Program-made: the position numbers and the translations under genes
In this document: positions 5,870 through 45,042 of the stretch, piece by piece
Position numbering within the stretch: the first letter of the stretch is position 1
Layout of the letters: each line of letters opens with the position of its first letter
The notes under the pieces: model-generated
Database searches by the model: none
What the model was told of the DNA's origin: nothing
The model's input: only the letters and a program-made list of their open reading frames with translations
Source: a virus
Length of the DNA stretch: 45,042 nt
Strand: one strand, 5' to 3'
Virus record (IMG/VR): IMGVR_UViG_3300020215_000017
Coordinates: 1 to 45,042 of that record

Positions 5870-5958
5870 CACCCAAAGATTATCATTGTGAAGCCCACCA
5901 CGATGGCGACCCCACAGAGGGCTAAGACCAGCAACAGGAAGTAGTCGTAGTTCTCCAT
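5869..5958 (-). CDS. One-helix membrane micro-protein, 29 aa, apparently leaderless
   Basis: ATG 5958 to TGA 5869-5871. The product, MENYDYFLLLVLALCGVAIV then VGFTMIIFG, is almost entirely one membrane helix. The ATG follows a TGGTACAAT extended -10 box by 6 nt with no ribosome site, as in the leaderless genes at 2914 and 41346. It overlaps the next gene by TGATG. Confidence 0.6.
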   Translation of the reverse strand: MENYDYFLLLVLALCGVAIVVGFTMIIFG

Positions 5959-5964
5959 GTGGGT

Positions 5965-5970
5965 ATTGTA
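5965..5970 (-). promoter_or_regulatory. Extended -10 box, leaderless start
   Basis: Minus-strand TGG followed by TACAAT (5970-5965) stands 6 nt before the ATG at 5958. No good -35 is seen at 17-18 nt. It could supply a separate start for the genes from 5958 leftwards, inside the longer unit from the promoter at 6906-6934. Confidence 0.45.
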
Positions 5971-5976
5971 CCACGT

Positions 5977-6135
5977 CTAGCAGTAACTGAAGCCACACCC
6001 CTGGCACATCATGCAACCGCCACTGCTCACCAGTTTCATCGAGCAGTCCGGGCACCGCTGTGGCCTCCACGGATCGTCAAGCACCTCCATCGGCGCGACA
6101 TGATTCAGGGATGAGTTACTCAGGGTATATTCCAT
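5977..6135 (-). CDS. Stand-alone zinc ribbon like the C-terminus of class II ribonucleotide reductase, 52 aa
   Basis: ATG 6135 follows GGAGACCAAG. The C-terminal half reads CPDCSMKLVSSGGCMMCQGC followed by GFSYC. This matches, from memory, the zinc ribbon at the end of B12-dependent (class II) ribonucleotide reductases: CPxC, L-V-x-x-G-G-C, CxxCG, S-x-C. No reductase catalytic gene is in the window. It may modulate a host reductase, or be a zinc ribbon that merely converged on the pattern. Confidence 0.7.
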   Translation of the reverse strand: MEYTLSNSSLNHVAPMEVLDDPWRPQRCPDCSMKLVSSGGCMMCQGCGFSYC

Positions 6136-6153
6136 CTTGGTCTCCAACAGCGA

Positions 6154-6459
6154 CTACTTAGACGGCGGCTCTGTTTCTTCGATACCTGCGATCTCATCCC
6201 TGGGGCCGTCTAACCGCGTGATGAGTTCGTCCAACTTCTTCTGTACCGCCCAGTCGTTGCGGTTCTGTGTGTTTTGAATGAGGAAGACCATGAGGAACGT
6301 CACGATGGTCGTCCCAGTATTGATGACGAGTTGCCAAACCTCAGAGAAACCAAACAGCGGACCGCTGGCACCCCAGATCAGCACTACCGCTAGGGCAACG
6401 CTGAACACCCACGGGGAACCTACAGCGTGGCTAACCCCCTGGGCGATCTTGCTGAACAC
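6154..6459 (-). CDS. Low-affinity iron permease-like membrane protein, 101 aa
   Basis: GTG 6459 start. Two membrane helices (about 15-34 and 41-60) are followed by the motif FLIQNTQNRNDWAVQKKLDE. Helix-loop-helix followed by FLIQNTQNRD...KLDELI is the hallmark of the low-affinity iron permease family (PF04120 type). The short C-terminal tail is acidic. Such proteins occur in bacteria, and a phage copy is unusual. Whether it carries metal or only borrows the fold is unknown. Confidence 0.75.
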   Translation of the reverse strand: MFSKIAQGVSHAVGSPWVFSVALAVVLIWGASGPLFGFSEVWQLVINTGTTIVTFLMVFLIQNTQNRNDWAVQKKLDELITRLDGPRDEIAGIEETEPPSK

Positions 6460-6462
6460 ACG

Positions 6463-6642
6463 CTACTCTGCGTTTGTACGGTCAGAGGTGATCGTGGAGT
6501 AACGCCGCCAATCCCAAGGACTGTACCCCGGTCCCCACCACGGCTCATTCCACCAACCGCGTCTTGAAAAGTCAGGATGTCTGAATCGGCAGCAACCGGG
6601 GAGGCCGTCACCCACACAGTGGCAGACAAACACTTCGTCCAT
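6463..6642 (-). CDS. Small Cys/Trp-rich protein, 59 aa
   Basis: ATG 6642 follows CTAGAGGTCAGC. The product begins MDEVFVCHCVGDGLPGCCRF and continues with a Trp/Arg/Pro-rich part (GWWNEPWWGPGYSPWDW). C-H-C and CC suggest metal binding. Its stop lies 3 nt before the GTG of the next gene. Family unknown. Confidence 0.6.
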   Translation of the reverse strand: MDEVFVCHCVGDGLPGCCRFRHPDFSRRGWWNEPWWGPGYSPWDWRRYSTITSDRTNAE

Positions 6643-6650
6643 GCTGACCT

Positions 6651-6755
6651 CTAGTTAATGGGCTCTCGTGTCCCACAACTAGGACACCTATAGCTCCGGG
6701 CCATCCTATGCATGATGGCACCGCAGTTCTCGCAACGCTTCTGCTTTTCCGACAA
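6651..6755 (-). CDS. Mini zinc ribbon, 34 aa
   Basis: TTG 6755 follows TAGGAGTCCGCTT. The product begins LSEKQKRCENCGAIMHRMAR and ends with a CPSCG knuckle, a minimal two-knuckle zinc ribbon. The stop TAG overlaps the AGAGG ribosome site of the next gene (CTAGAGG). First confident gene after the promoter at 6906-6934. Confidence 0.6.
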   Translation of the reverse strand: MSEKQKRCENCGAIMHRMARSYRCPSCGTREPIN

Positions 6756-6905
6756 AGCGGACTCCTACAAGGAAGTGCTAGCGATACACCTTATATACGC
6801 AAGGCCGCGTGTGGAAAGCGGGCTACCCTTCCGTATCGCCATGTACCCACGGGGCGAAGACGTTGTTCCTAACTTTGTAGAAAGGCACCTTCGCCGTAGA
6901 CCTGC

Positions 6906-6934
6906 ATTATAACACTTCCCTGGGGCAATGTCTA
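6906..6934 (-). promoter_or_regulatory. Strong leftward promoter
   Basis: On the minus strand TAGACA (6934-6929) and TATAAT (6911-6906) are separated by 17 nt, with TGT before the -10 box. Only one base departs from the -35 consensus. It should drive the leftward cluster of zinc-ribbon and membrane micro-proteins and the tRNAs (6755-4499). Confidence 0.75.
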
Positions 6935-7001
6935 TACTACAAATGCAATAGGCAAACTAAACCGGAGGGGGTTAATTCATCTCCACGGCGGTATTGTAGC
7001 A

Positions 7002-7042
7002 CAAAGAAAAAGCCGGGAGTAGGTGCAAACTACTTCCCGGCT
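7002..7042 (-). terminator. Intrinsic terminator, leftward
   Basis: AGCCGGGAGTAG (7011-7022) pairs with CTACTTCCCGGCT (7030-7042), apart from one extra base, and is followed on the minus strand by TTTTTCTTT (7010-7002). It closes the short leftward unit that starts near 7083 and insulates the promoter at 6906-6934. Confidence 0.85.
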
Positions 7043-7095
7043 CCCAGGGGCCTCTACACCCGAACATGTAGGAGGTGACGTGCAGTGTGATTATA
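7002..7095 (-). ncRNA. Candidate small RNA, unit 2
   Basis: TGGTATAAT on the minus strand (-10 box 7095-7090) has the extended -10 form. A start near 7083 and the terminator at 7002-7042 would give an RNA of about 80 nt. It contains TCACCTCCT, the sequence of the 3' end of bacterial 16S rRNA (anti-Shine-Dalgarno), so it could mask ribosome sites. A 31-codon frame from an ATG inside has no proper ribosome site. Transcription itself is inferred. Confidence 0.45.
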
Positions 7096-7100
7096 CCAAA

Positions 7101-7157
7101 TAGAAAGCCGGAAGAGAAGGTGCACTCCGTAGCTAGGGCCTCGGCATCTCTTCCGGC
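7101..7157 (-). terminator. Intrinsic terminator, leftward, with long loop
   Basis: GCCGGAAGAGA (7107-7117) pairs perfectly with TCTCTTCCGGC (7147-7157). On the minus strand it is followed by TTTCTATTT. The 29-nt loop is large, which may weaken it. It is the second leftward terminator within 150 nt although no leftward protein gene lies to its right. Confidence 0.65.
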
Positions 7158-7211
7158 AGGAGACGTATCCGTATCAGAGCATCGGTCTGTGGAAACGTCG
7201 CTGCCATTATA
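7101..7211 (-). ncRNA. Candidate small RNA, unit 1
   Basis: The same layout as unit 2: TGGTATAAT (-10 box 7211-7206), about 40 nt of unique sequence, then a long hairpin (7107-7157) and a T-rich run. The expected size is about 98 nt. The T-rich end of this unit runs directly into the TGGTATAAT of unit 2, so the two are packed head to tail. The unit sequences outside the hairpins are not alike. Confidence 0.4.
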
Positions 7212-7217
7212 CCACCG

Positions 7218-7420
7218 CTTTGGCGTGCATCGTGGCGGCTATTATTTCGTCCGGCCCGTTCCAGGGAGCGACCACCCTGTCCTACGGGTGGTGCGACGGG
7301 TCTGCTTGCAAACGGCGTGTAACAATCCAACGCACGCCAATACACGCCAACATGTATATATGCGTGTTTGCGTTTGGCAGATGAGAGCTTTTTGAAACCT
7401 TTTCACCATTTTCTGTAATG
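7218..7420. repeat. Iteron-like repeats and AT-rich stretch (origin or packaging-site candidate)
   Basis: GCACGCCAAT (7333-7342) and ACACGCCAAC (7343-7352) are tandem 10-nt repeats. TTGGCGTG also occurs in reverse near 7220, and GCGTTTGGCAG near 7371. ACACGC and GCGTGT flank CAACATGTATATAT as a hairpin, and an AT-rich run follows (7381-7420). Repeats plus a melting region beside the terminase gene suggest a replication origin or a packaging site; no protein here identifies which. Confidence 0.4.
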
Positions 7421-7449
7421 TTGACACCCCACGCCCCAACTGTTACAGT
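7421..7449 (+). promoter_or_regulatory. Rightward late promoter 1
   Basis: TTGACA (7421-7426), a 17-nt spacer, and TACAGT (7444-7449) preceded by TGT. It lies upstream of a second promoter (7493-7521), so the virion operon has two tandem starts. A transcript from here would carry a leader of about 70 nt before the terminase start. Confidence 0.7.
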
Positions 7450-7492
7450 GAAGCACGGCGCGAAGTTACTGGGTTGGGCTTCAATTTGCCCA

Positions 7493-7521
7493 TTGACTTT
7501 TGACTTAACATAAGTTATAAT
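7493..7521 (+). promoter_or_regulatory. Rightward late promoter 2, leaderless
   Basis: TTGACT (7493-7498), 17-nt spacer, TATAAT (7516-7521). The terminase GTG starts at 7529, 7 nt after the -10 box, so the transcript would begin at or within one or two bases of the start codon. No Shine-Dalgarno sequence lies before that GTG. A TTAACATAAGTTATAA stretch overlapping the -10 box resembles the ACATAACTA boxes. Confidence 0.75.
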
Positions 7522-7528
7522 CAGGCGC

Positions 7529-8989
7529 GTGACTGCCCCAACCCTGATTTACCCATCGGCAGCCCTCGGCAGCGCCTTCTCTGAGGTCGCCTCGTGGATT
7601 GCCCCCGCACGCGCAGCACGGCCCAAGGATTTCCAGTCCCGTCTTGATCGGTTCCGCCAGCGCCAAGGGTTTGCGCCAGGCCGAGGTCAAGAAGCTGTCA
7701 TACGGGCCGTGCACGCTGCGGTCACAGGCGATGGTCCCCGCGAGATATGGGTGAAATCCGGCAAGCGGTCCGGCAAAACGACGTGCGCGAAAGACCTCAT
7801 CGAAGAAGAGATGCAGTGGGACGAGGGGATCATTTGGATCGCCGCGCCGTCCTACCCCCTCGGGGATAAGATTTTCGACGCAGTAACCGAAGGCTTCCCA
7901 CGGAACCATGTACGGAACCAGCCCCCGAAGCAGGCGAAGTTCGGTAAGACCGGCTGGCTGAAGGTCCGCTCCTGGGAGAACCTCGGCTCCATCGAAGGTG
8001 ACGGTGTGATGCTCCTGATCGCTGACGAGGGGCAACTACTCACCTCTACCGCGTACAAGAAGCTCCGTGCCCGCCTAGTGGACACAGGGGGTATCCTGAT
8101 CGTCTTCGGTGCACCGTTGCAGGACAGCGACTTCTTCCTCACGAAGTTCGAGCAGATTCAGGAAATGGAAGCCCTCTGCGAGCGGACTGGCGAACTCCCC
8201 ACCGCGCGGACCCTGTACTTCAGCACCGAGGACAACCCCAACGTCGAAGTACAGATCAACCTCCAAGGTGAACGCCTAGCCCTCTCGCATGAAGAGTACG
8301 GTGAGATGTACCTCGGTGTGCCGGGCCGTCCCGAGGGCGTGGTCTTCCCTACCTTTAATAAGGACATCCACACAGGCAACGTGCCGTTCAACCCTGACCT
8401 CCCCGTAACCCTGATGGTTGACCCCGGCCAGCGGTGGTACGGCGTGAACGCGGTGCAAGTCCTCGGTGGGCAAGTTCGCATGATCGAAGCGATGAAGCTG
8501 GGACCGCAGGCCACTGACTACCAGGTCATCGCTGAAGTCGGCAAGAAACCTTGGTGGCAGAACGTCTACAAGTCCGGTGGTGGCCTCGTCTCCGATATCG
8601 CTGCGAAGGCCCACCGCGCGGAGTCAGAGCGCAGCACCGCCGATAACTGGGAGACCTTCACGGGACTGAAACCGGATATGCGCTTCATCGAAGTCGCTGC
8701 AGGTCACACCGTTCTACAGTCCTTCCTTCTTGACCCGATGACCGGCCAGCCCATGCTTATCTGTGACGCTACGTTATGTAAACCTTTCATCGAAGAGATG
8801 TTCAAGTACAAGTACAACGCGCTGGGCCGCCCCATCGACAGGGATAACCACAACATCAAGGCGCTGATCTACTTCCTCGTGGCCCGCTTTGGTTATACCC
8901 CCCTCATCGAGAAGAAGGCCAAGCCCGCGTATTCGTACCTCTCAGACCCAGAGCGAAGACGCCGCCGCTCAGTACGGAGAACCCTCTAA
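7529..8989 (+). CDS. terL: Terminase large subunit, 486 aa
   Basis: This is the packaging motor ATPase and nuclease that pumps DNA into the procapsid through the portal. Walker A is KSGKRSGKTT (about residues 76-85). Walker B is VMLLIADEG (about 160-168), hydrophobic stretch then D-E. The C-terminal nuclease domain shows TLMVDPGQRW (near 293), LVSDIAAKAH and a late RDNHNIKALIYFLV, as in RNase H-like terminase nucleases. Start GTG 7529 sits at the predicted transcription start. The stop TAA overlaps the portal ATG (TAATG). Its small-subunit partner is probably the distant gene at 41346. Confidence 0.92.
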   Translation: MTAPTLIYPSAALGSAFSEVASWIAPARAARPKDFQSRLDRFRQRQGFAPGRGQEAVIRAVHAAVTGDGPREIWVKSGKRSGKTTCAKDLIEEEMQWDEGIIWIAAPSYPLGDKIFDAVTEGFPRNHVRNQPPKQAKFGKTGWLKVRSWENLGSIEGDGVMLLIADEGQLLTSTAYKKLRARLVDTGGILIVFGAPLQDSDFFLTKFEQIQEMEALCERTGELPTARTLYFSTEDNPNVEVQINLQGERLALSHEEYGEMYLGVPGRPEGVVFPTFNKDIHTGNVPFNPDLPVTLMVDPGQRWYGVNAVQVLGGQVRMIEAMKLGPQATDYQVIAEVGKKPWWQNVYKSGGGLVSDIAAKAHRAESERSTADNWETFTGLKPDMRFIEVAAGHTVLQSFLLDPMTGQPMLICDATLCKPFIEEMFKYKYNALGRPIDRDNHNIKALIYFLVARFGYTPLIEKKAKPAYSYLSDPERRRRRSVRRTL

Positions 8990-10887
8990 TGGCTCACGTT
9001 GACGACGGCCTCGACGCTGAAGAGTTCTTCATCCTCCGCGATGAACTCTACCAGGACGTGTACGCCGCGCAGCACGATCAGATGCGCCAAGATGACATCT
9101 ACTACAACCTCGAATACGCGGTTCAGGTTCCAGATAACAAGCCGATTTTGAAGCCGATGACCGCCCGTATCGCCGTGGACACCGCTGACGCGCATATCAT
9201 CACGGACTTCCCACGTATTAAGGTGCCCCGGCGTAAGACCCGCAGCGATGGAATTGAGAAGGCGCAGGCACAGGCTGAGATGGCCCGCTCCTTCTATGAG
9301 ACTCACCTGTACATGGCACGCCTCGGCACATCTCGCACTGACCCCATCTCGAAGGCGCGGAAGAACATGCTCCTCCGAGGCAAAGCTGCGCTCATGACAT
9401 ATCCCAACCCCGAGATCATCAGCAAGGAATGGGCCGACGAGTACAGCGACCGCGAACTTGACATAAACCGTTGGCCGATCCTCCTAGAGTCGCCTGACCC
9501 CCTGTCCTTCATGGAAGACCCCGACAGCGATCCCCCACAGTACGTTCTACTCATGAAGAACATGCGTTATCACACGCTCATGGGGTACGACTTCATCAGC
9601 GACGACGCACGGGACAGCCTTCAGAAGCAACTGAACTCAGGTAGAGGTAGATTCGCCTATACGACCGTCTGGGAATACTGGACACCCAATCGCGTCCAGT
9701 GGTTCGACGAATCGACAACCGAGATGCTCTGGGACTACGAGCACGGCTGGGGCGAACACCCATTCAGCATTGCATTCTCCGGCTACGGCCTTGAGAAACG
9801 CGACATGTCCGACACTATGCGAGTGGGTTCCCGACGCGCTGAGTGGGGCCAAGAGTCCCTGTCAGTCGGCCTGCTCACCCACCTCGTGAAGTCCGGTGTG
9901 CTCAACCAGGAAGCGCTCACCGCGAGTCAAGTCGCCTCGATGATGACCGACGCCGCGTGGGTGAACTACCTCCTCGACGACCGTATCGACCAGCAGTTTG
10001 CCCCAGGTAGCGGTATGGTCTACCCAATCAAACGCGAGCAGGGCGAACGCGCTGAAGATATGGTAGCGCCTGTCCGTGGCGTCCCCCCAGACCCATCACT
10101 CTTCGCGTACCTCCAAGGCTTGCAGCAGGAGAGCTTTGCCGCTACCGCCCCCAAAGCCGTACAGGGTATCCATGAACCTGGTGTCAACGCTGCCGCCCAT
10201 GCCGCACAGAACTCAGCGGCGGCTCGTCTACGCTACGGCTCACCACTGTTCAACATGCAGCGACTCCTTAGCATGTCATGCAGCAAAGCCGCGTACTACC
10301 ACGAGCACGTCATCAAGAAACCAATCACCGTCTTCGCTGGTATGCCCACAGCGATGAACGAAATCACCATCAAAGGCGATGACTGGGATGGCTTCTATTT
10401 CAACGAAGTGATCTTGCAGACGAGTGACACAGGTGAGAGGGATCAGCGCATCTTGACGGGTGAACGACTCATCACTACCTACGGTATGGACCCAGTGATG
10501 ATCGCAGAGTCCCACGGTGGAATCGACAACCCGCAGGAACAGTGGCTCGAAGCTGCAGCGAAACGACTCATCGACGCGGCAGGCGCGGACATCCTCAAGA
10601 AGTCCCTCGAAGAGATGTGGGCGATCCGCAAGGCCGAAATCGACCAAGAGATGGGCATCACCCCAGACCAATTGCAGGGCCTCGTACCCCAGCCCGGTAT
10701 GGAAGGTCTAGTCCAAGAAGACGCCGCAGCCGTAATGAACGAAATGCAGTCCTTCGGAACGAACAGTGGTGCCCCCCAGTCCCTCGTTCAGATGGACCGC
10801 AATATGAGGCGCACCGCCCAAGGACCGCCAGACCGCACCGGGCAAGACCTCCCGCCAATGGCACCCACAGGAGGCTACGGTGGCTAA
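8989..10887 (+). CDS. Portal protein, 632 aa
   Basis: It directly follows the terminase (TAATG overlap) and has the size and make-up of podovirus-type portals: acidic N-terminus, a long mixed alpha/beta core with many Trp/Tyr (TTVWEYWTPNRVQWFDE), a helical crown region (PGVNAAAHAAQNSAAARLRY) and a Gln/Met-rich tail. The ring would sit at the capsid vertex and take the motor and later the tail. No catalytic motif is expected. The assignment rests on position and composition. Confidence 0.85.
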   Translation: MAHVDDGLDAEEFFILRDELYQDVYAAQHDQMRQDDIYYNLEYAVQVPDNKPILKPMTARIAVDTADAHIITDFPRIKVPRRKTRSDGIEKAQAQAEMARSFYETHLYMARLGTSRTDPISKARKNMLLRGKAALMTYPNPEIISKEWADEYSDRELDINRWPILLESPDPLSFMEDPDSDPPQYVLLMKNMRYHTLMGYDFISDDARDSLQKQLNSGRGRFAYTTVWEYWTPNRVQWFDESTTEMLWDYEHGWGEHPFSIAFSGYGLEKRDMSDTMRVGSRRAEWGQESLSVGLLTHLVKSGVLNQEALTASQVASMMTDAAWVNYLLDDRIDQQFAPGSGMVYPIKREQGERAEDMVAPVRGVPPDPSLFAYLQGLQQESFAATAPKAVQGIHEPGVNAAAHAAQNSAAARLRYGSPLFNMQRLLSMSCSKAAYYHEHVIKKPITVFAGMPTAMNEITIKGDDWDGFYFNEVILQTSDTGERDQRILTGERLITTYGMDPVMIAESHGGIDNPQEQWLEAAAKRLIDAAGADILKKSLEEMWAIRKAEIDQEMGITPDQLQGLVPQPGMEGLVQEDAAAVMNEMQSFGTNSGAPQSLVQMDRNMRRTAQGPPDRTGQDLPPMAPTGGYGG

Positions 10888-11089
10888 ACCCTCTGAGCAG
10901 ATCATGACTGACCTCATGAACATGACCCTCGGTACGATGGAGCAAATCTACCGTAGCGTTGCTGCACGTCAGATGAACCCCCTTATCCTACGTGAAGAAA
11001 CCCCCTACGAGAAGAAGAAACGCCTCGCTGAACCGGAACGCCACGAAGAGGAAATCGACGACCTGATTAAGGAGGCCATTCTTGGCTAG
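10880..11089 (+). CDS. Small charged virion-operon protein, 69 aa
   Basis: GTG 10880 with a perfect AGGAGG five bases upstream, inside the last codons of the portal gene. It is helical; the second half is strongly charged (YEKKKRLAEPERHEEEIDDL). It overlaps the next gene by 8 nt. Unknown family; possibly a connector or packaging accessory factor. Confidence 0.7.
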   Translation: MAKPSEQIMTDLMNMTLGTMEQIYRSVAARQMNPLILREETPYEKKKRLAEPERHEEEIDDLIKEAILG

Positions 11090-12392
11090 GCCAGCCGACC
11101 TCATAGACGAGTGGCTCCAGCAGACCTACGACGAGGACGAAGAGCCTACACCCATCGGCCCTGAAGATGACGATGAGGTTGACTTCGGTGCGCCGTATTC
11201 CCCACCGTCAAGTCCCAACCGTGGTCCCGCGCCGACTGGACCAATGCGTAACTTCGAGGATGACTTCGTACCAGGTGGCTTGGGACCGTCGCTGAACCCA
11301 AGACCAAATCCCGCCGCTGCACCACCGCCACCGGACAAATACCCGACGATTCGCCCTGAAGTCAAGCAGATCATCAATGACCTCGACAGGGAGATCACCG
11401 ACCTCAGGCGAACGCTTAGCAATACCAAAGCGACTACGCAGCTTATCACGGGACCAGATGGCAAACCTGTAGCTAACCCCGACTATAACCCCAACTTCGA
11501 GCAGATGCAGAAGCGTCTTGCCGCAGCGGAAGTTGAACGTCGAAGACTATTAGCAAGCCCATCGAACGTTATCAAGCCGCAGACGACTACCGTAGGACCA
11601 GACGGCCTCACGGCGTACCAGCGGGAACAACTAGCACTCGCCAAGGATAAAGCTACCCGCGATGCACTGAAGGCTGAGTTCGACCTTGCTAATGCTAAAC
11701 GCAAGGCTGAGCAGGATGAAGCGCAGTTTGGTATCACCCAGCGTAAAGGGACGCAAGACCTAGCCAAAGGTGAACAAGACCTCAGCAAAGGGGTCTACGA
11801 CATTAGCAAGGCTAAGGCCGATGCTCAGCGTGCGAACGACGATGTAACGATCAACCGCAACAAGGAAGCCCGCGATCAGGCGAAGCATAAAGCGGACCTC
11901 GAAAAGCTAGGCTTCGACATCGTTAACGCGAAGTCCATTGCTGAGCGTAACGCCATCATCGCTAAGTACCAAGAAGACCACGAGATTGCGGACCTTACAA
12001 AGAAGTCTCTCGACATCAAGAAGTCAAAGATCGGTGTTGACGAGGCGCAGTATAATTTAGAGGCGTCAAAGCGGGCTGAACAGCGTCAGATTGAACAGCA
12101 ACGGGCAACGCTGATCCGTCAGATCGCAGCGATGACCCCACAGGAACTCATCATGTACAAGGCGCTTAAAGGGCCTGTACCCGGTGGCGGTGAGATGCCT
12201 TCAGGCGGTGGTGGTAAATCAAAACACGCTGACCTCCTTGCTTCCAATGACGTAGTGTGGCAGACGAAGAATGGACCTCGCACCCGCGCTCAGATGGAGG
12301 CGGAACTCAAGGCACTGGGATGGGGTGGCGGTGATGTCCACTCCGCATACGCAAAGACTACAGGCGGCGACGTTCGATTGGAGAAACGGTAA
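11082..12392 (+). CDS. Long helical virion protein, 436 aa
   Basis: Start TTG 11082 follows AAGGAGGCCATTC. Residues 1-85 are acidic and Pro-rich. Residues about 90-370 are mostly Lys/Glu/Ala/Gln coiled coil with a repeating pattern (KGTQDLAKGEQDLSKGVYDI). The C-terminus is Gly-rich. Between portal and scaffold, together with the next three genes, it is best explained as an internal (ejection) protein stored in the capsid. No enzymatic motif. Stop overlaps the next ATG (TAATG). Confidence 0.75.
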   Translation: MARPADLIDEWLQQTYDEDEEPTPIGPEDDDEVDFGAPYSPPSSPNRGPAPTGPMRNFEDDFVPGGLGPSLNPRPNPAAAPPPPDKYPTIRPEVKQIINDLDREITDLRRTLSNTKATTQLITGPDGKPVANPDYNPNFEQMQKRLAAAEVERRRLLASPSNVIKPQTTTVGPDGLTAYQREQLALAKDKATRDALKAEFDLANAKRKAEQDEAQFGITQRKGTQDLAKGEQDLSKGVYDISKAKADAQRANDDVTINRNKEARDQAKHKADLEKLGFDIVNAKSIAERNAIIAKYQEDHEIADLTKKSLDIKKSKIGVDEAQYNLEASKRAEQRQIEQQRATLIRQIAAMTPQELIMYKALKGPVPGGGEMPSGGGGKSKHADLLASNDVVWQTKNGPRTRAQMEAELKALGWGGGDVHSAYAKTTGGDVRLEKR

Positions 12393-13711
12393 TGGCTGAA
12401 CCAGGGGTTTATGTAGGCGACGAACGAGTAGATAACGGTAGCGGGGGCGGTGGCTCTGGTGGCGGTGGCGGCGGTGGTGACCCCATTGCTGAAGCCATCG
12501 CCCTGCAAAACCGCATGCAGGCTGAAGCGAATGCCTTCCAAGCCGCACAAGCCGCTGCCGCCCGTGCACACGCTGCGGAACAGGCACGCCTCGACCGTGA
12601 GTTCCAAGCGCAGCAGGCAGAGCTAGCACGCGCCCTCTCCCGCGAGCAGTTCGAGAAGACCTACGTTGAGAACAAGCGACAGTACGATCTCAGCAAAGCG
12701 CAGCGTGACCGGGAGTTCCTCTACAGTCAGCGACAAGCGTGGACCCAGTTCGCCACGAACTACCAGTTGCAGGCTGAGCAGATTAAGACTGCCCGCGAGA
12801 ACTTCTACGCGAATCCTCGTAACCTCGTCCAGCGATTCGGCGCAGCTAACGGTGCGGACCCCGCTGTTCGCCAGTCAATAGAACGTGACTATAAACGCCG
12901 TGCTGCTGGTGGAATGATTACACCCGCTGAGTTGGCTTCAGGAATCGCGTTTGAATATGGTGTAGACCGCAACTACAAGCAGCCGTCGTATGAGCTTCCC
13001 GAAGCGTTCAACCCAGACAGGATGTACGCCGGTGCGCCTAACTCCATGCAGGCTGAACCCCCAGCGGCAGCTACAGGTGGCATAGTCAACATCTCAGCCG
13101 AGGAAGCACTCGACCTTATCGCTGCGAACCGCCCGAACATCGCAGAGCACTACCGCGCGAACGGTTGGACTATCAACACGCCAGAGGACATGCGCAAGGC
13201 TATCGCTGACTGGCTTCAGATGACCGACGACCCCAACGTCCTCAGTGTAGGTAGGAACCCTCAACAGTACGCGATTAAGCAGGGATTTGTGAAGCCCCCG
13301 GTTCCAGCGACTCCAACCATTCCAGGTGGTACTGCTCCGAAGGGTGGCGGCGGCGCGACGACCCAGCCAATCGGCGCTCGTGACCCAATGCTCGACCCAC
13401 AGCAAGCACGTATCCAGCCTATCGCACCGGCGAACCTGCTTACACCGGCAGCGCAGCCGACTATCAGTCAGCCGATGGGTAGCAACGCCTCGATGATCTT
13501 CAACCCAAGTAACTCGTTTGTTGACCCCGCTAGGGCACCCATACCCCCGGCTGCCCTCGGTTCCGCTGGTCGCTACGTCAAGGTACCTGACCTCGGTAAC
13601 AGTGAAGTAGCCAATGACATCGAGCAGCAAATGTACCTTCCGACGAATTACCCAGGTGTACAGGAAGGTGGACCCCTTAGATGGGAGTACGCTGAGATCG
13701 TGAATCGTTAG
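12392..13711 (+). CDS. Internal virion protein candidate with Gly linker and coiled coil, 439 aa
   Basis: ATG 12392, with GGAGAAACG upstream. A glycine stretch (about residues 15-30) is followed by a coiled coil rich in Gln, Ala, Arg (about 31-130). A middle domain follows, then a Pro/Ala/Gln-rich region (about 295-400). The architecture resembles podovirus ejection proteins, but I recognise no named family. An SD (TTAGGAGTAACC) for the next gene overlaps its stop. Confidence 0.7.
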   Translation: MAEPGVYVGDERVDNGSGGGGSGGGGGGGDPIAEAIALQNRMQAEANAFQAAQAAAARAHAAEQARLDREFQAQQAELARALSREQFEKTYVENKRQYDLSKAQRDREFLYSQRQAWTQFATNYQLQAEQIKTARENFYANPRNLVQRFGAANGADPAVRQSIERDYKRRAAGGMITPAELASGIAFEYGVDRNYKQPSYELPEAFNPDRMYAGAPNSMQAEPPAAATGGIVNISAEEALDLIAANRPNIAEHYRANGWTINTPEDMRKAIADWLQMTDDPNVLSVGRNPQQYAIKQGFVKPPVPATPTIPGGTAPKGGGGATTQPIGARDPMLDPQQARIQPIAPANLLTPAAQPTISQPMGSNASMIFNPSNSFVDPARAPIPPAALGSAGRYVKVPDLGNSEVANDIEQQMYLPTNYPGVQEGGPLRWEYAEIVNR

Positions 13712-28750: not shown

Positions 28751-29047
28751 ATGACACCAGAGACCATTTGGGCCGCCCTCACTGCTGCCATCGCCGCGCT
28801 CTTCACAGGTCTCACCGCTATCGGTAGGTCCTACCTTAACGACGTGAAGGACCAGCGCAACCACCTCCGCGATAAGATCGTTGACATCCTGGCGAAGCAG
28901 GCGGATACCCAGAAGGTCCAAGCGGACATGCTTGAGGCTGTGGTTGACACGGCGAAAGAGGTCAGCGGGAAGCTCGACAAGGCGATCCGGGAGATTGAAG
29001 AGTTACAGCGTGAGCAGACTAGGAGGGACCGTGAACGTCCCCGTTGA
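28751..29047 (+). CDS. Membrane-anchored coiled-coil protein, 98 aa
   Basis: ATG 28751 immediately after the fibre stop. Residues 5-28 (IWAALTAAIAALFTGLTAIG) form one membrane helix; residues 35-98 are coiled coil with a strongly charged end. This is the shape of spanin-like or holin-accessory proteins encoded after tail genes, but no lipobox or signal for either is clear. Confidence 0.7.
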   Translation: MTPETIWAALTAAIAALFTGLTAIGRSYLNDVKDQRNHLRDKIVDILAKQADTQKVQADMLEAVVDTAKEVSGKLDKAIREIEELQREQTRRDRERPR

Positions 29048-29231
29048 GGTATGGGCGTTGGCACTCTTTGCAATGACGATGATTGGACTCGGGCTGTTCG
29101 TCTACGCTTTTGTGCGGCGTAAGCCAGACCTAATCCCCGATGAAAAACTCGATGCGGTTGAAAGGAAGACCAACCTCACCGCTTGGAAACTACGCAATAT
29201 GCTCGAAGGTGAGAGGATGGTGCGCCGGTGA
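29031..29231 (+). CDS. Small one-helix membrane protein, 66 aa
   Basis: GTG 29031 is preceded directly by AGGAGGGACC, an excellent ribosome site, inside the 3' end of the previous gene. Residues 5-25 (VWALALFAMTMIGLGLFVYA) are a membrane helix, followed by a charged helix. It overlaps the next GTG by four bases. Probably part of the lysis or membrane module. Confidence 0.7.
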   Translation: MNVPVEVWALALFAMTMIGLGLFVYAFVRRKPDLIPDEKLDAVERKTNLTAWKLRNMLEGERMVRR

Positions 29232-36793: not shown

Positions 36794-39181
36794 CTACTCC
36801 CAGTGCTCCGAGACCTTCACATCCACAGGGCACGGTACCCCACAGATTTGGTCCCACATTGCTTCCTTAATCTCAGCGACCTTGTTGTCAACCAGTTCGG
36901 TGGGAACGTAGATCATCAGCGAGTCGTGTACAGACATGACGATCTCGATGTCGCTGATCTGTATCGCCCGCAGCATAGCACGCTTCATCAGGTCTGCGGC
37001 TTCCCCCTGGGCTACCTCGAAGTTTACACCTTCACGGAGGGCTTCAGCAATGAGCTTCGGGTCGTGGCTATGGATGTTCGGGAAGTACCGGCGACGGCCC
37101 ATCATGGTCTCGGCGTAGCCACGGGTCAGGATGTTCGCTTTTACGGTGTCGATGTAGGCGGCGGCATTGGGTAGGTTGGCCCTAAACTGCTCCTGCAAGA
37201 TGCGGGCTTGGTCAACGGTGATGAAGACCTTCTCTACTGCTGCTGACTGTTGAATCTTGTGGGCCTCAGCACCGTAGAGGGTTCCATAGATCAGGGTCTT
37301 CGCTAACTTGCGCTCTAACTCAGTGACCTGCCGTCCGTACAGTTGCTCAGCAAAGGCACGGTGGATATCCCGACCTTCACGGAAAGCGTTGATGAGGTAG
37401 GGTTCCTGTGCCTTACCCGCCAGCACCCGCAGTTCCAATTGGCTGTAGTCCGCTTCAACGAAGAGCATCCCCGGTGGAGCTATGAAGATGCTGTGGAAGC
37501 GGGGGTCCTTTGGAATGTTCTGCATGTTCGGGTTGCTGCTGCTGAACCGCCCCGTCGAGGTGCCCTCTTGGGTCAACGTGGCGTGGATACGTCCGTTGTC
37601 TGCTGATCTTCGATACAAAGCATCTACATAAGTTGACTTGAGTTTGGCTGCACGGCGGTAGTCCTGTATGAGCTTCGCCAGTGGGTGGTCAATCCCGTTC
37701 AGGATGTCCTTGGTAACAGCTAGCTGTCCTGACTTGGTTTTCTTGCGTAGTGAGATACCCGCCGTCTGCAACACCCTGACCACTTGGTCATGGCTGTTTG
37801 CGTTGAACTCCGGGTCACCAACGATAACTCGAAGCCGGTCAAGGGCATCCAGAGCGTCCCTTTCAAGCGTCTGTCCCAATCGTGATAGTACCTCACGGTC
37901 AACCTCCATACCACGCTCTTCAATGAGGATCACCACGGGGAGGATACGTTCTTCCAGCCGTGCAACCTCTTCGGGTACCTGACCTTGCTGTTGCCAGTGG
38001 AGGTACAGCCGCAAGGTCATGTCGGCGTCAGCACAGGCGTACTCGTAGTACTCCCAGGGATCGACCCCCTCTAAACTCGCTTCGGTTGCAGCTTCTTTGA
38101 AGGTGGTCATGCGGATGCCCAACTCACTGAGGGCTAGGGCCTTCAGACCTCGGTGGGGTTTCTGCAACTGAGTAGCACGAAGGTAGGTGTCTCTGATGTC
38201 TAAGCTAAGTAGATCATCCTTAGTAAACCAGAGTAGTTCCTTCAACTTGGGGATGTCAGTCTTGCCGTAGTGAAACACCAACGGGACATGCTTCAGGTAC
38301 AACATACAGATGTCAGCGATCACCCCCTTGTGTGTAACGTACCAGCCTTTTCCGGGGAGTGGTGCAATAGACATACCGAGTAGGGTGCCATCGGGGAGGT
38401 ATTCAGTGTCGATGCCTACAGGAAGGTTCTTAGCAAAGACGTACTCCAAGTCATCGTACATATCCTTGAAGTTGTTGTGCATGTTCCAGCCACGGATGAG
38501 TTGGTAGTACCCATCTGGGCGTGCTTCACCGAACATCAGCCCCTTCAACGCGCGCAGTTCATCCTCGAAGATCGGCAGATACTTGTCGAGCCCCATCCGC
38601 AACACCCAAGCCGGATGATGCAGGATGAACACGTCTACGTCATATTTCTCAGAACGACGGACGGTCCCTGCTTCGGAGTTGATCTTACAGTCACGTCCAA
38701 GGAAGTGTTGTGCCGCAGTTCCACCAACAGCAACGACCAGACGAACACGAGGCGGTTGAAGCAGAGGTCGCATGTACAGATCGGTGCAGGCATCGGACTC
38801 CTTCTTCTTGGGGGCTGGGTTGCCGGGACCGGGCCAGCATTTGACGAGGTTGGTGATCCATACGTCGCGGTCGGAGTCGATGCCGATGGCTTTCAACCCC
38901 TCGCTCAGCAGCACCCCGCTATCACCGACGAATGGTAGCCCCTGGCGGTTCTCATCTCTGCCTGGCCCCTCGCCTACGATCCATACCGGGGCATCAGGGT
39001 TGCCTCTGCCCCAGACTGACTGATCGCGGTGGACGTGGAGGGGGCAAGCAGTGCATTCAGCGGCAGTGCTCCTCAACCTTGTCCAAGAATCCGAAGACAG
39101 AGTTGTGTCGATTGCATTTGCAGCAGACTCGGATTCGAGGGGTCCGTTTAACGGTGCATCCACAAGGATAGGTGCGCTCAA
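36794..39181 (-). CDS. Uracil-DNA glycosylase-DNA polymerase A fusion, 795 aa
   Basis: Residues about 33-215 are a family 4-type uracil-DNA glycosylase: four Fe-S cysteines (C43, C46, C115, C132), GEGPGRDE with GLPFVGDSG, and HHPAWVLR near 178. Then comes a DnaQ-like 3'-5' exonuclease (GIDTEYLPDG; late YACADADMTL), then family A polymerase: motif A ADYSQLELR, motif B RKLAKTLIYGTLYG, motif C SVHDSL. In motif B the position of E. coli Phe762 is Tyr, as in T7 polymerase, which lowers discrimination against dideoxynucleotides. TTG 39181 has AGAGGA upstream but overlaps the preceding gene by 125 nt; TTG 39076 is a shorter alternative. Confidence 0.92.
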   Translation of the reverse strand: MSAPILVDAPLNGPLESESAANAIDTTLSSDSWTRLRSTAAECTACPLHVHRDQSVWGRGNPDAPVWIVGEGPGRDENRQGLPFVGDSGVLLSEGLKAIGIDSDRDVWITNLVKCWPGPGNPAPKKKESDACTDLYMRPLLQPPRVRLVVAVGGTAAQHFLGRDCKINSEAGTVRRSEKYDVDVFILHHPAWVLRMGLDKYLPIFEDELRALKGLMFGEARPDGYYQLIRGWNMHNNFKDMYDDLEYVFAKNLPVGIDTEYLPDGTLLGMSIAPLPGKGWYVTHKGVIADICMLYLKHVPLVFHYGKTDIPKLKELLWFTKDDLLSLDIRDTYLRATQLQKPHRGLKALALSELGIRMTTFKEAATEASLEGVDPWEYYEYACADADMTLRLYLHWQQQGQVPEEVARLEERILPVVILIEERGMEVDREVLSRLGQTLERDALDALDRLRVIVGDPEFNANSHDQVVRVLQTAGISLRKKTKSGQLAVTKDILNGIDHPLAKLIQDYRRAAKLKSTYVDALYRRSADNGRIHATLTQEGTSTGRFSSSNPNMQNIPKDPRFHSIFIAPPGMLFVEADYSQLELRVLAGKAQEPYLINAFREGRDIHRAFAEQLYGRQVTELERKLAKTLIYGTLYGAEAHKIQQSAAVEKVFITVDQARILQEQFRANLPNAAAYIDTVKANILTRGYAETMMGRRRYFPNIHSHDPKLIAEALREGVNFEVAQGEAADLMKRAMLRAIQISDIEIVMSVHDSLMIYVPTELVDNKVAEIKEAMWDQICGVPCPVDVKVSEHWE

Positions 39182-44727: not shown

Positions 44728-44910
44728 TTATGCCGCGCCTGTTCCACCGTACCGGCTAGCGAAACTCTCAAACGTTCTAGCGAGATTCGCCATTGTCTGG
44801 GGAGTAACGGTGTAGTGCCACTCCCCGTCAGTTTGGTGGTAGTGCGTTTCGTGTAGCACGTTCTCAACTTCCGCTAGTAACGCTTGTAGCCGCTTATTAC
44901 GTTCGCTCAT
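44728..44910 (-). CDS. Small helical protein, 60 aa
   Basis: ATG 44910, with a weak AGGA close upstream. Product MSERNKRLQALLAEVENVLH, then HYHQTDGEWHYTVTPQTMAN, helix-strand-strand-helix. Unknown family. The motif CGTTAACCTAGACCG lies just after it, and a near copy (CGTTAACCTAAGCCG) just before it at 44929-44943 and 14-28. Confidence 0.65.
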   Translation of the reverse strand: MSERNKRLQALLAEVENVLHETHYHQTDGEWHYTVTPQTMANLARTFESFASRYGGTGAA

Positions 44911-44915
44911 TCCTG

Positions 44916-45042
44916 CACCTCCTACGGTCGTTAACCTAAGCCGTTACCTAATGGCCTAGCGCCAGAGTTTGTACCCTGGCGGCAGACCACTAAGTTAGTC
45001 TGCCGTGGCCGCTATCGCTTGCTAATGTCGTGGGGCGTCAGC
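44916..45042. repeat. Terminal direct repeat, copy 2
   Basis: This is the second copy of bases 1-127. Removing one copy gives a 44,915-bp circle in which the leftward gene array runs without a break from 2545 through 97 to 44910 and on to 42052. Bases 45012-45042 repeat the 3' end of the gene at 97-450 and are not a separate gene. Confidence 0.95.

What the first reader, a model, noticed from the sequence alone, without database searches (positions are those of the whole stretch)
7002..7211. Two head-to-tail small-RNA units in front of the late promoters
Each unit consists of TGGTATAAT, a short unique stretch and a terminator hairpin with a T-rich end, and unit 1's T-run merges into unit 2's promoter. 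No leftward protein gene is present to explain two terminators. Unit 2 contains TCACCTCCT, the anti-Shine-Dalgarno sequence of 16S rRNA. A phage RNA with that sequence could bind AGGAGG sites of phage or host messages and shift translation, possibly favouring leaderless messages that need no such site.
Basis: partly seen in the sequence, partly recalled or inferred. Interest (0 to 1): 0.65.

Follow-up and report, generated by a model that had tools for sequence, protein, structure and literature searches.

The report
Duplicated phage promoter–terminator small-RNA genes
A phage with no close known relatives carries two diverged tandem copies of a tiny gene that appears to make only a short RNA; one copy contains the ribosome's anti-Shine-Dalgarno sequence, but nothing found here shows that this sequence is used.

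Summary
On the minus strand, two units each have a perfect extended -10 (TGGTATAAT), a short non-coding stretch and an intrinsic terminator. TGNTATAAT occurs only three times in 45 kb, all on this strand within 310 bp. Two of the window's five strict terminator hits end these units. The units are diverged duplicates: terminator plus following promoter align far better than shuffles, and 4 of 11 terminator-stem pairs differ by compensatory double changes. Two self-terminating RNAs (about 98 and 78 nt) are therefore likely.

TCACCTCCT is real, but most of it is paired in RNA2's 5' hairpin. Its predicted pairing with phage start regions is no better than flank-shuffled controls. Most phage genes use SD sequences, and only about two look leaderless. 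No relative was found in the collections searched, so conservation is untestable.

Best reading: early leftward non-coding RNAs, placed like the abundant, toxic, partly essential Pleft RNAs of mycobacteriophages L5 and D29, but built differently. The main rival is an attenuated leader.

The parts
7206..7214 (-). P1: extended -10 promoter TGGTATAAT, no recognisable -35
   Evidence: among the three best of 11 top-scoring extended -10 sites in the genome
7100..7199 (-). RNA1, predicted non-coding transcript of about 98-100 nt (5' hairpin, linker UCCU, terminator hairpin)
   Evidence: start and end inferred from -10 spacing and T-tract; fold -37.6 kcal/mol
7098..7157 (-). T1: intrinsic terminator (11-bp stem, T-rich tail)
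7090..7098 (-). P2: extended -10 promoter TGGTATAAT, joined to the T-tract of T1
7004..7083 (-). RNA2, predicted non-coding transcript of about 78-80 nt
   Evidence: fold -31.3 kcal/mol
7070..7078 (-). TCACCTCCT, identical to the 16S anti-Shine-Dalgarno; UCA unpaired, CCUCCU mostly in the 5' hairpin 7051-7075
7003..7043 (-). T2: intrinsic terminator, diverged duplicate of T1 with 4 compensatory pair changes of 11
6993..7001 (-). P3: extended -10 TGCTACAAT joined to the T-tract of T2; followed at leaderless spacing by GTG GAG ATG AAT TAA
6906..6934 (-). P4: TAGACA, 17 nt, TATAAT with TG before it (11 of 12); probable main promoter of the leftward small-gene cluster
6651..6755 (-). first leftward ORF downstream, TTG start with AGGAG before it, 34-aa zinc-ribbon-like protein (two CxxC pairs)
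   Evidence: read
5869..5973 (-). P5 TGGTACAAT and a leaderless 29-aa single-membrane-span ORF starting at 5958

Best explanation
The interval holds two tandem, diverged copies of one small-RNA gene. Host RNA polymerase would start leftward at P1 and P2 from strong extended -10 promoters and stop at T1 and T2, giving non-coding RNAs of about 98 and 78 nt that carry no open frame of use. P3 and P4, after T2, separately drive the leftward cluster of small, probably early, genes. The two RNAs most likely act in trans as early riboregulators during takeover of the host, each with an accessible 5' portion and a stable terminator tail; RNA2 may start pairing through GCACGUCA-CCUCCU. Shown: the elements, their non-random clustering, the duplication and the preserved stems. 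Inferred: transcription, timing, action in trans, and any use of the anti-SD.
For: TGNTATAAT only 3 times in the genome, all here on one strand. Two strict terminators in 100 bp. Units align with score 21.5 against a shuffle mean of 9.4, 1 of 2000 shuffles reaching it, and 4 of 11 stem pairs show double compensatory changes with none broken. No coding signal on either strand: plus-strand ORF 7087-7395 scores -0.25 against a null of -0.27 and has no Pfam hit. P3 and P4 lie downstream of both terminators, so P1 and P2 are not needed to express the genes unless the terminators are overridden. Precedent: L5, D29 and StarStuff make abundant stable non-coding RNAs between the early leftward promoter and the first leftward gene; in L5 that region is toxic and part of it could not be deleted (PMC5712189); Rhodococcus phage WC1 shows similar RNAs (PMC10986025).
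Against: No transcript data. No homologue, so no conservation beyond the two copies within this genome. No significant phage target; host unknown, so host targets cannot be tested. The codon test has little power for very short ORFs: the small leftward ORFs also score low. The aligned duplicate part is mainly terminator plus promoter; the 5' portions differ, so the duplication could have been kept for promoter and terminator rather than for RNA.
Confidence: 0.55

Rival explanations
1. Attenuated leader: T1 and T2 are control points. P1 and P2 transcripts end there until a phage or host factor allows read-through, which then adds to expression of the leftward small genes.
For: All promoters and terminators point toward the same downstream cluster; tandem promoter-terminator leaders under antitermination are established in lambdoid phages (general knowledge). 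The terminators precede P3 and P4 directly.
Against: P3 and P4 stand after both terminators and would make attenuation ineffective unless they are weak or regulated. No antitermination protein was recognised among the genes scanned, though most genes have no known family.
Confidence: 0.2
2. The RNAs are by-products: P1 and P2 matter as DNA (polymerase loading, keeping the divergent region open, blocking rightward or leftward passage), or as a source of replication primers, with terminators limiting transcription.
For: The interval separates divergent transcription. It holds an AT-rich stretch near 7462 and an imperfect dyad about 7330-7380; a 16-nt site recurs at 7055 and 7341.
Against: GC skew shows no turning point here (minimum 44773, maximum 4806). 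The recurring site is near chance expectation (hand estimate about 0.26 such pairs per kb).
Confidence: 0.12
3. One reading: RNA2 is an anti-Shine-Dalgarno mimic that blocks SD-led translation broadly and favours leaderless phage messages.
For: The exact 9-mer UCACCUCCU lies near the RNA's 5' end; net pairing with AGGAGGUGA would be favourable after opening. Gene 44728-44910 has a 10-nt complementary start region GTAGGAGGTG, the only other AGGAGGTG in the genome. Bacterial sRNAs with exposed anti-SD motifs exist, e.g. alpha-r14/NfeR1 (PMC10746234).
Against: Motif mostly paired; target energy not beyond flank-shuffled controls (51/400); most phage genes are SD-led themselves (42/70), so they would be hit too; unit 1 lacks the motif.
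Confidence: 0.1
4. TCACCTCCT is the reverse complement of a Shine-Dalgarno (AGGAGGTGA) of a rightward ORF, GTG 7087 to 7395 (102 codons), and the hairpins are incidental.
For: AGGAGGTGA is a perfect SD 11 nt before GTG 7087; the ORF is open.
Against: Codon score equals the out-of-frame null (-0.253 vs -0.272 +/- 0.167), no Pfam match; it would not explain minus-strand terminators with T-tracts and three matching promoters.
Confidence: 0.03

Closest known systems
Pleft non-coding RNAs of cluster A mycobacteriophages (L5, D29, StarStuff; PMC5712189)
   Same: Non-coding leftward RNA made between the early leftward promoter region and the first leftward gene, next to the divergent late (rightward) arm; several RNA species.
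   Different: There a roughly 500-bp region is transcribed from one mapped promoter, the authors saw no canonical terminator and suggest processing; the D29 region has no TATAAT-type -10, no CCTCC and no strict terminator apart from one weak candidate. Here each RNA has its own promoter and terminator. No sequence similarity was found.
alpha-r14 / 'cuckoo' sRNAs (NfeR1, RF02344) of alphaproteobacteria
   Same: Short sRNA with CCUCC-type anti-SD sequence; the best Rfam match of unit 2 is ar14.
   Different: 16.4 bits against a gathering score of 58.8, E 1.2, so not a member. In ar14 the CCUCCUCCC motifs are unpaired loops (PMC10746234); here most of the motif is in a stem.
Lambda oop, 6S (late leader) and PreS RNAs (PMC12197685 for oop and PreS)
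   Same: Short phage RNAs; oop and 6S have their own promoter and terminator (general knowledge).
   Different: Not duplicated head to tail; different position and no sequence relation.

Membership tests
Independent self-terminating small-RNA gene | Own promoter, short non-coding body, intrinsic terminator | tested here: met
   (sequence level only)
Independent self-terminating small-RNA gene | A discrete transcript is made | not testable with these tools
   needs RNA-seq or Northern blot
Cluster A-type Pleft non-coding RNA | Position between leftward promoter region and first leftward gene, no ORF | tested here: met
Cluster A-type Pleft non-coding RNA | Sequence homology to the L5/D29 region | tested here: not met
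   no match in INPHARED with the 1.1-kb region at word size 11; D29 region compared directly for motifs
Cluster A-type Pleft non-coding RNA | High abundance, stability, toxicity | not testable with these tools
   experimental properties
alpha-r14 sRNA (RF02344) | Covariance-model score at or above the gathering threshold | tested here: not met
   16.4 vs 58.8 bits
alpha-r14 sRNA (RF02344) | Anti-SD motif in unpaired loops | tested here: not met
   CCUCCU mostly paired in the predicted fold
Anti-SD riboregulator | Pairing with start regions beyond chance | tested here: inconclusive
   phage targets no better than flank-shuffled controls; host unknown

The most novel reading that the evidence does not exclude
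The phage makes two sibling early RNAs from a duplicated gene, and RNA2 uses its ribosome-mimicking 5' segment, opened from its hairpin through the free GCACGUCA toehold, to silence SD-led host messages.
Probability: 0.1. Interest if true: 0.75.

Novelty: new member of a known kind. Interest (0 to 1): 0.35.

Why it matters
Non-coding RNAs from the early leftward region of actinobacteriophages are among their most abundant transcripts and are toxic in one case, yet their mode of action is unknown. A compact version with its own promoters and terminators, in two copies with preserved stems, would be a convenient object to test whether such RNAs act in trans. If the anti-SD were shown to work, it would be a direct attack by a phage RNA on initiation of translation.

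Tried and rejected
Relatives: terL, DNA polymerase, portal-position, 439-aa (12392-13711) and 2013-aa proteins in IMG/VR, terL in GTDB genomes, the locus and three proteins in INPHARED; only the same virus (L001/L014/L047, L044) or very remote polymerases and terminases were found. DNA patterns: TGGTATAAT-N-TCACCTCCT gave 41 stretches, of which L014 is the same virus and the others shown have unrelated flanks; some of these are plainly the reverse complement of an SD. The junction pattern gave only the same virus and L049, where the match lies inside a coding gene; the terminator pattern gave only the same virus in IMG/VR and scattered hits over many phyla in genomes, not followed up. Contig 3300020202_000475 is identical from 1 to 11043, so it carries no conservation signal. 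Protein on the plus strand: rejected by codon score. Replication origin: no GC-skew turn here. Leader peptide: the 24-codon frame of unit 1 (ATG 7208) starts inside the -10 hexamer and has no SD; a 31-codon frame in unit 2 runs through the terminator, without SD. Phage targets of RNA1 and RNA2: none beyond chance for RNA2; RNA1 not tested against shuffles.

Full report
What the window is. The window is an IMG/VR virus record of 45,042 bp whose first and last 127 bases are identical, so it is probably a complete, circularly permuted or circularised genome. Terminase, capsid- and tail-position genes run rightward from 7529 to 29686; DNA polymerase, a helicase/primase-like protein, exonuclease and Sak4-like genes run leftward at 31-39 kb. 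A separate cluster of small leftward ORFs lies at about 6755-4841, followed by a terminator at 4773 and two tRNA genes. Host: unknown; a 101-aa Iron_permease-family protein in that cluster has its phage relatives in mycobacteriophages and Streptomyces phages (37-40% identity), which hints at an actinobacterial host.

Check of the observation. The minus strand reads, from 7214 down: TGGTATAAT, about 100 nt with a terminator hairpin at 7157-7107, TGGTATAAT at 7098-7090, about 80 nt with a terminator hairpin at 7043-7010, TGCTACAAT at 7001-6993, and TAGACA-17-TATAAT (TG before it) at 6934-6906. Scoring every 9-mer of both strands for an extended -10, 11 sites score 10 or more and 7 of them lie between 5648 and 7513, six on the minus strand. 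Perfect TGNTATAAT sites: three, all here; shuffled genomes average 0.28, and none of 20,000 local shuffles has three on this strand. A strict terminator search gives five hits in the whole window (shuffle mean 2.4); two are T1 and T2.

Duplication. The two units are related: local alignment 21.5 against a dinucleotide-shuffle mean of 9.4, reached by 1 of 2000. Shared are GCACCT-CTC-CCGGCTTT-T-TTTG and the promoter after it, so the repeated block is best described as terminator plus following promoter. With one bulged A in T2 set aside, 7 of 11 stem pairs are the same and 4 differ on both sides (A-T/G-C, A-T/T-A, G-C/A-T, A-T/G-C), none broken. That pattern is expected if both hairpins were kept by selection. 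The pairing was aligned by hand on two sequences only, so it is suggestive rather than proof.

Not a protein. The plus-strand ORF 7087-7395 has a perfect SD (AGGAGGTGA, the complement of the 9-mer) but a codon score equal to out-of-frame sequence and no Pfam match. The same test has little power for the very short leftward ORFs.

The anti-SD. TCACCTCCT occurs once exactly, and one-mismatch matches occur as often as in shuffles. In the predicted RNA2 the first three letters are open, the rest lies mostly in a 5' hairpin; opening costs about 4.3 kcal/mol against -15.7 for a perfect SD duplex. The best phage start region (29031-29231, -28.5 kcal/mol by simple duplex) is matched or beaten by 51 of 400 flank-shuffled controls. 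A 10-nt complement lies at the SD of gene 44728-44910, a testable but unremarkable lead. Since 42 of 70 called genes have SD-like sequences (the gene caller favoured SDs somewhat), a general SD blocker would hit the phage itself. Leaderless layout is clear for terL (TATAAT, 7 nt, GTG 7529) and for a 29-aa membrane ORF at 5958.

Relatives. None. The only contig holding the locus is identical over 1-11043, and pattern and protein searches found no other related locus.

Comparison with known systems. The position matches the early leftward non-coding RNAs of cluster A mycobacteriophages, where L5 segments are toxic in M. smegmatis and part of the region could not be deleted (PMC5712189); similar RNAs are reported for Rhodococcus phage WC1 (PMC10986025). 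The build differs: in D29 no TATAAT-type -10, no CCTCC and no strong terminator was found in the region. Rfam's nearest family is ar14, far below threshold. I therefore file it as works-like, not member-of, for both.

Verdict. Two duplicated, self-terminating leftward RNA genes are likely (about 0.75 that both discrete RNAs exist, my estimate); trans-acting function is the most likely use (0.55 for the whole explanation); attenuation is the main rival (0.2); the anti-SD mechanism is possible but unsupported (about 0.1).

Noticed in passing
36794-39181 (-): Family A DNA polymerase with an N-terminal uracil-DNA-glycosylase superfamily domain in the same ORF (PF03167 E 6e-24 plus PF00476 E 4e-87).
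   Followed up: no
44937-44900, 44717-44685, also 44327 and 44176 (-): AGGTTAACGAC is repeated just before the SD of neighbouring small leftward genes (two exact, two with two changes), resembling a start-associated sequence.
   Followed up: partly
5869-5973 (-): Extended -10 TGGTACAAT six bases before the ATG of a 29-aa single-span membrane ORF (MENYDYFLLLVLALCGVAIVVGFTMIIFG): a leaderless micro-gene candidate.
   Followed up: partly
7055-7070 and 7341-7356 (+): Imperfect dyad TACAC[CG]C[CG]AACATGTA occurs twice, once in unit 2 and once before the late promoters; possible operator, but near chance by a hand estimate.
   Followed up: partly
4578-4654 (-): tRNA gene that ARAGORN reads with a four-base anticodon (ttaa), next to a tRNA-Thr.
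   Followed up: no
6651-6755, 5977-6147, 5684-5800 (-): Several very short ORFs with two CxxC pairs (zinc-ribbon-like) in the small leftward cluster.
   Followed up: no
4723-4773 (-/+): The terminator that ends the small leftward cluster carries TGGTATAAAAT on the other strand.
   Followed up: no
1-127 and 44916-45042: Identical 127-bp ends, so the record is probably a complete genome although IMG/VR gives no completeness.
   Followed up: yes
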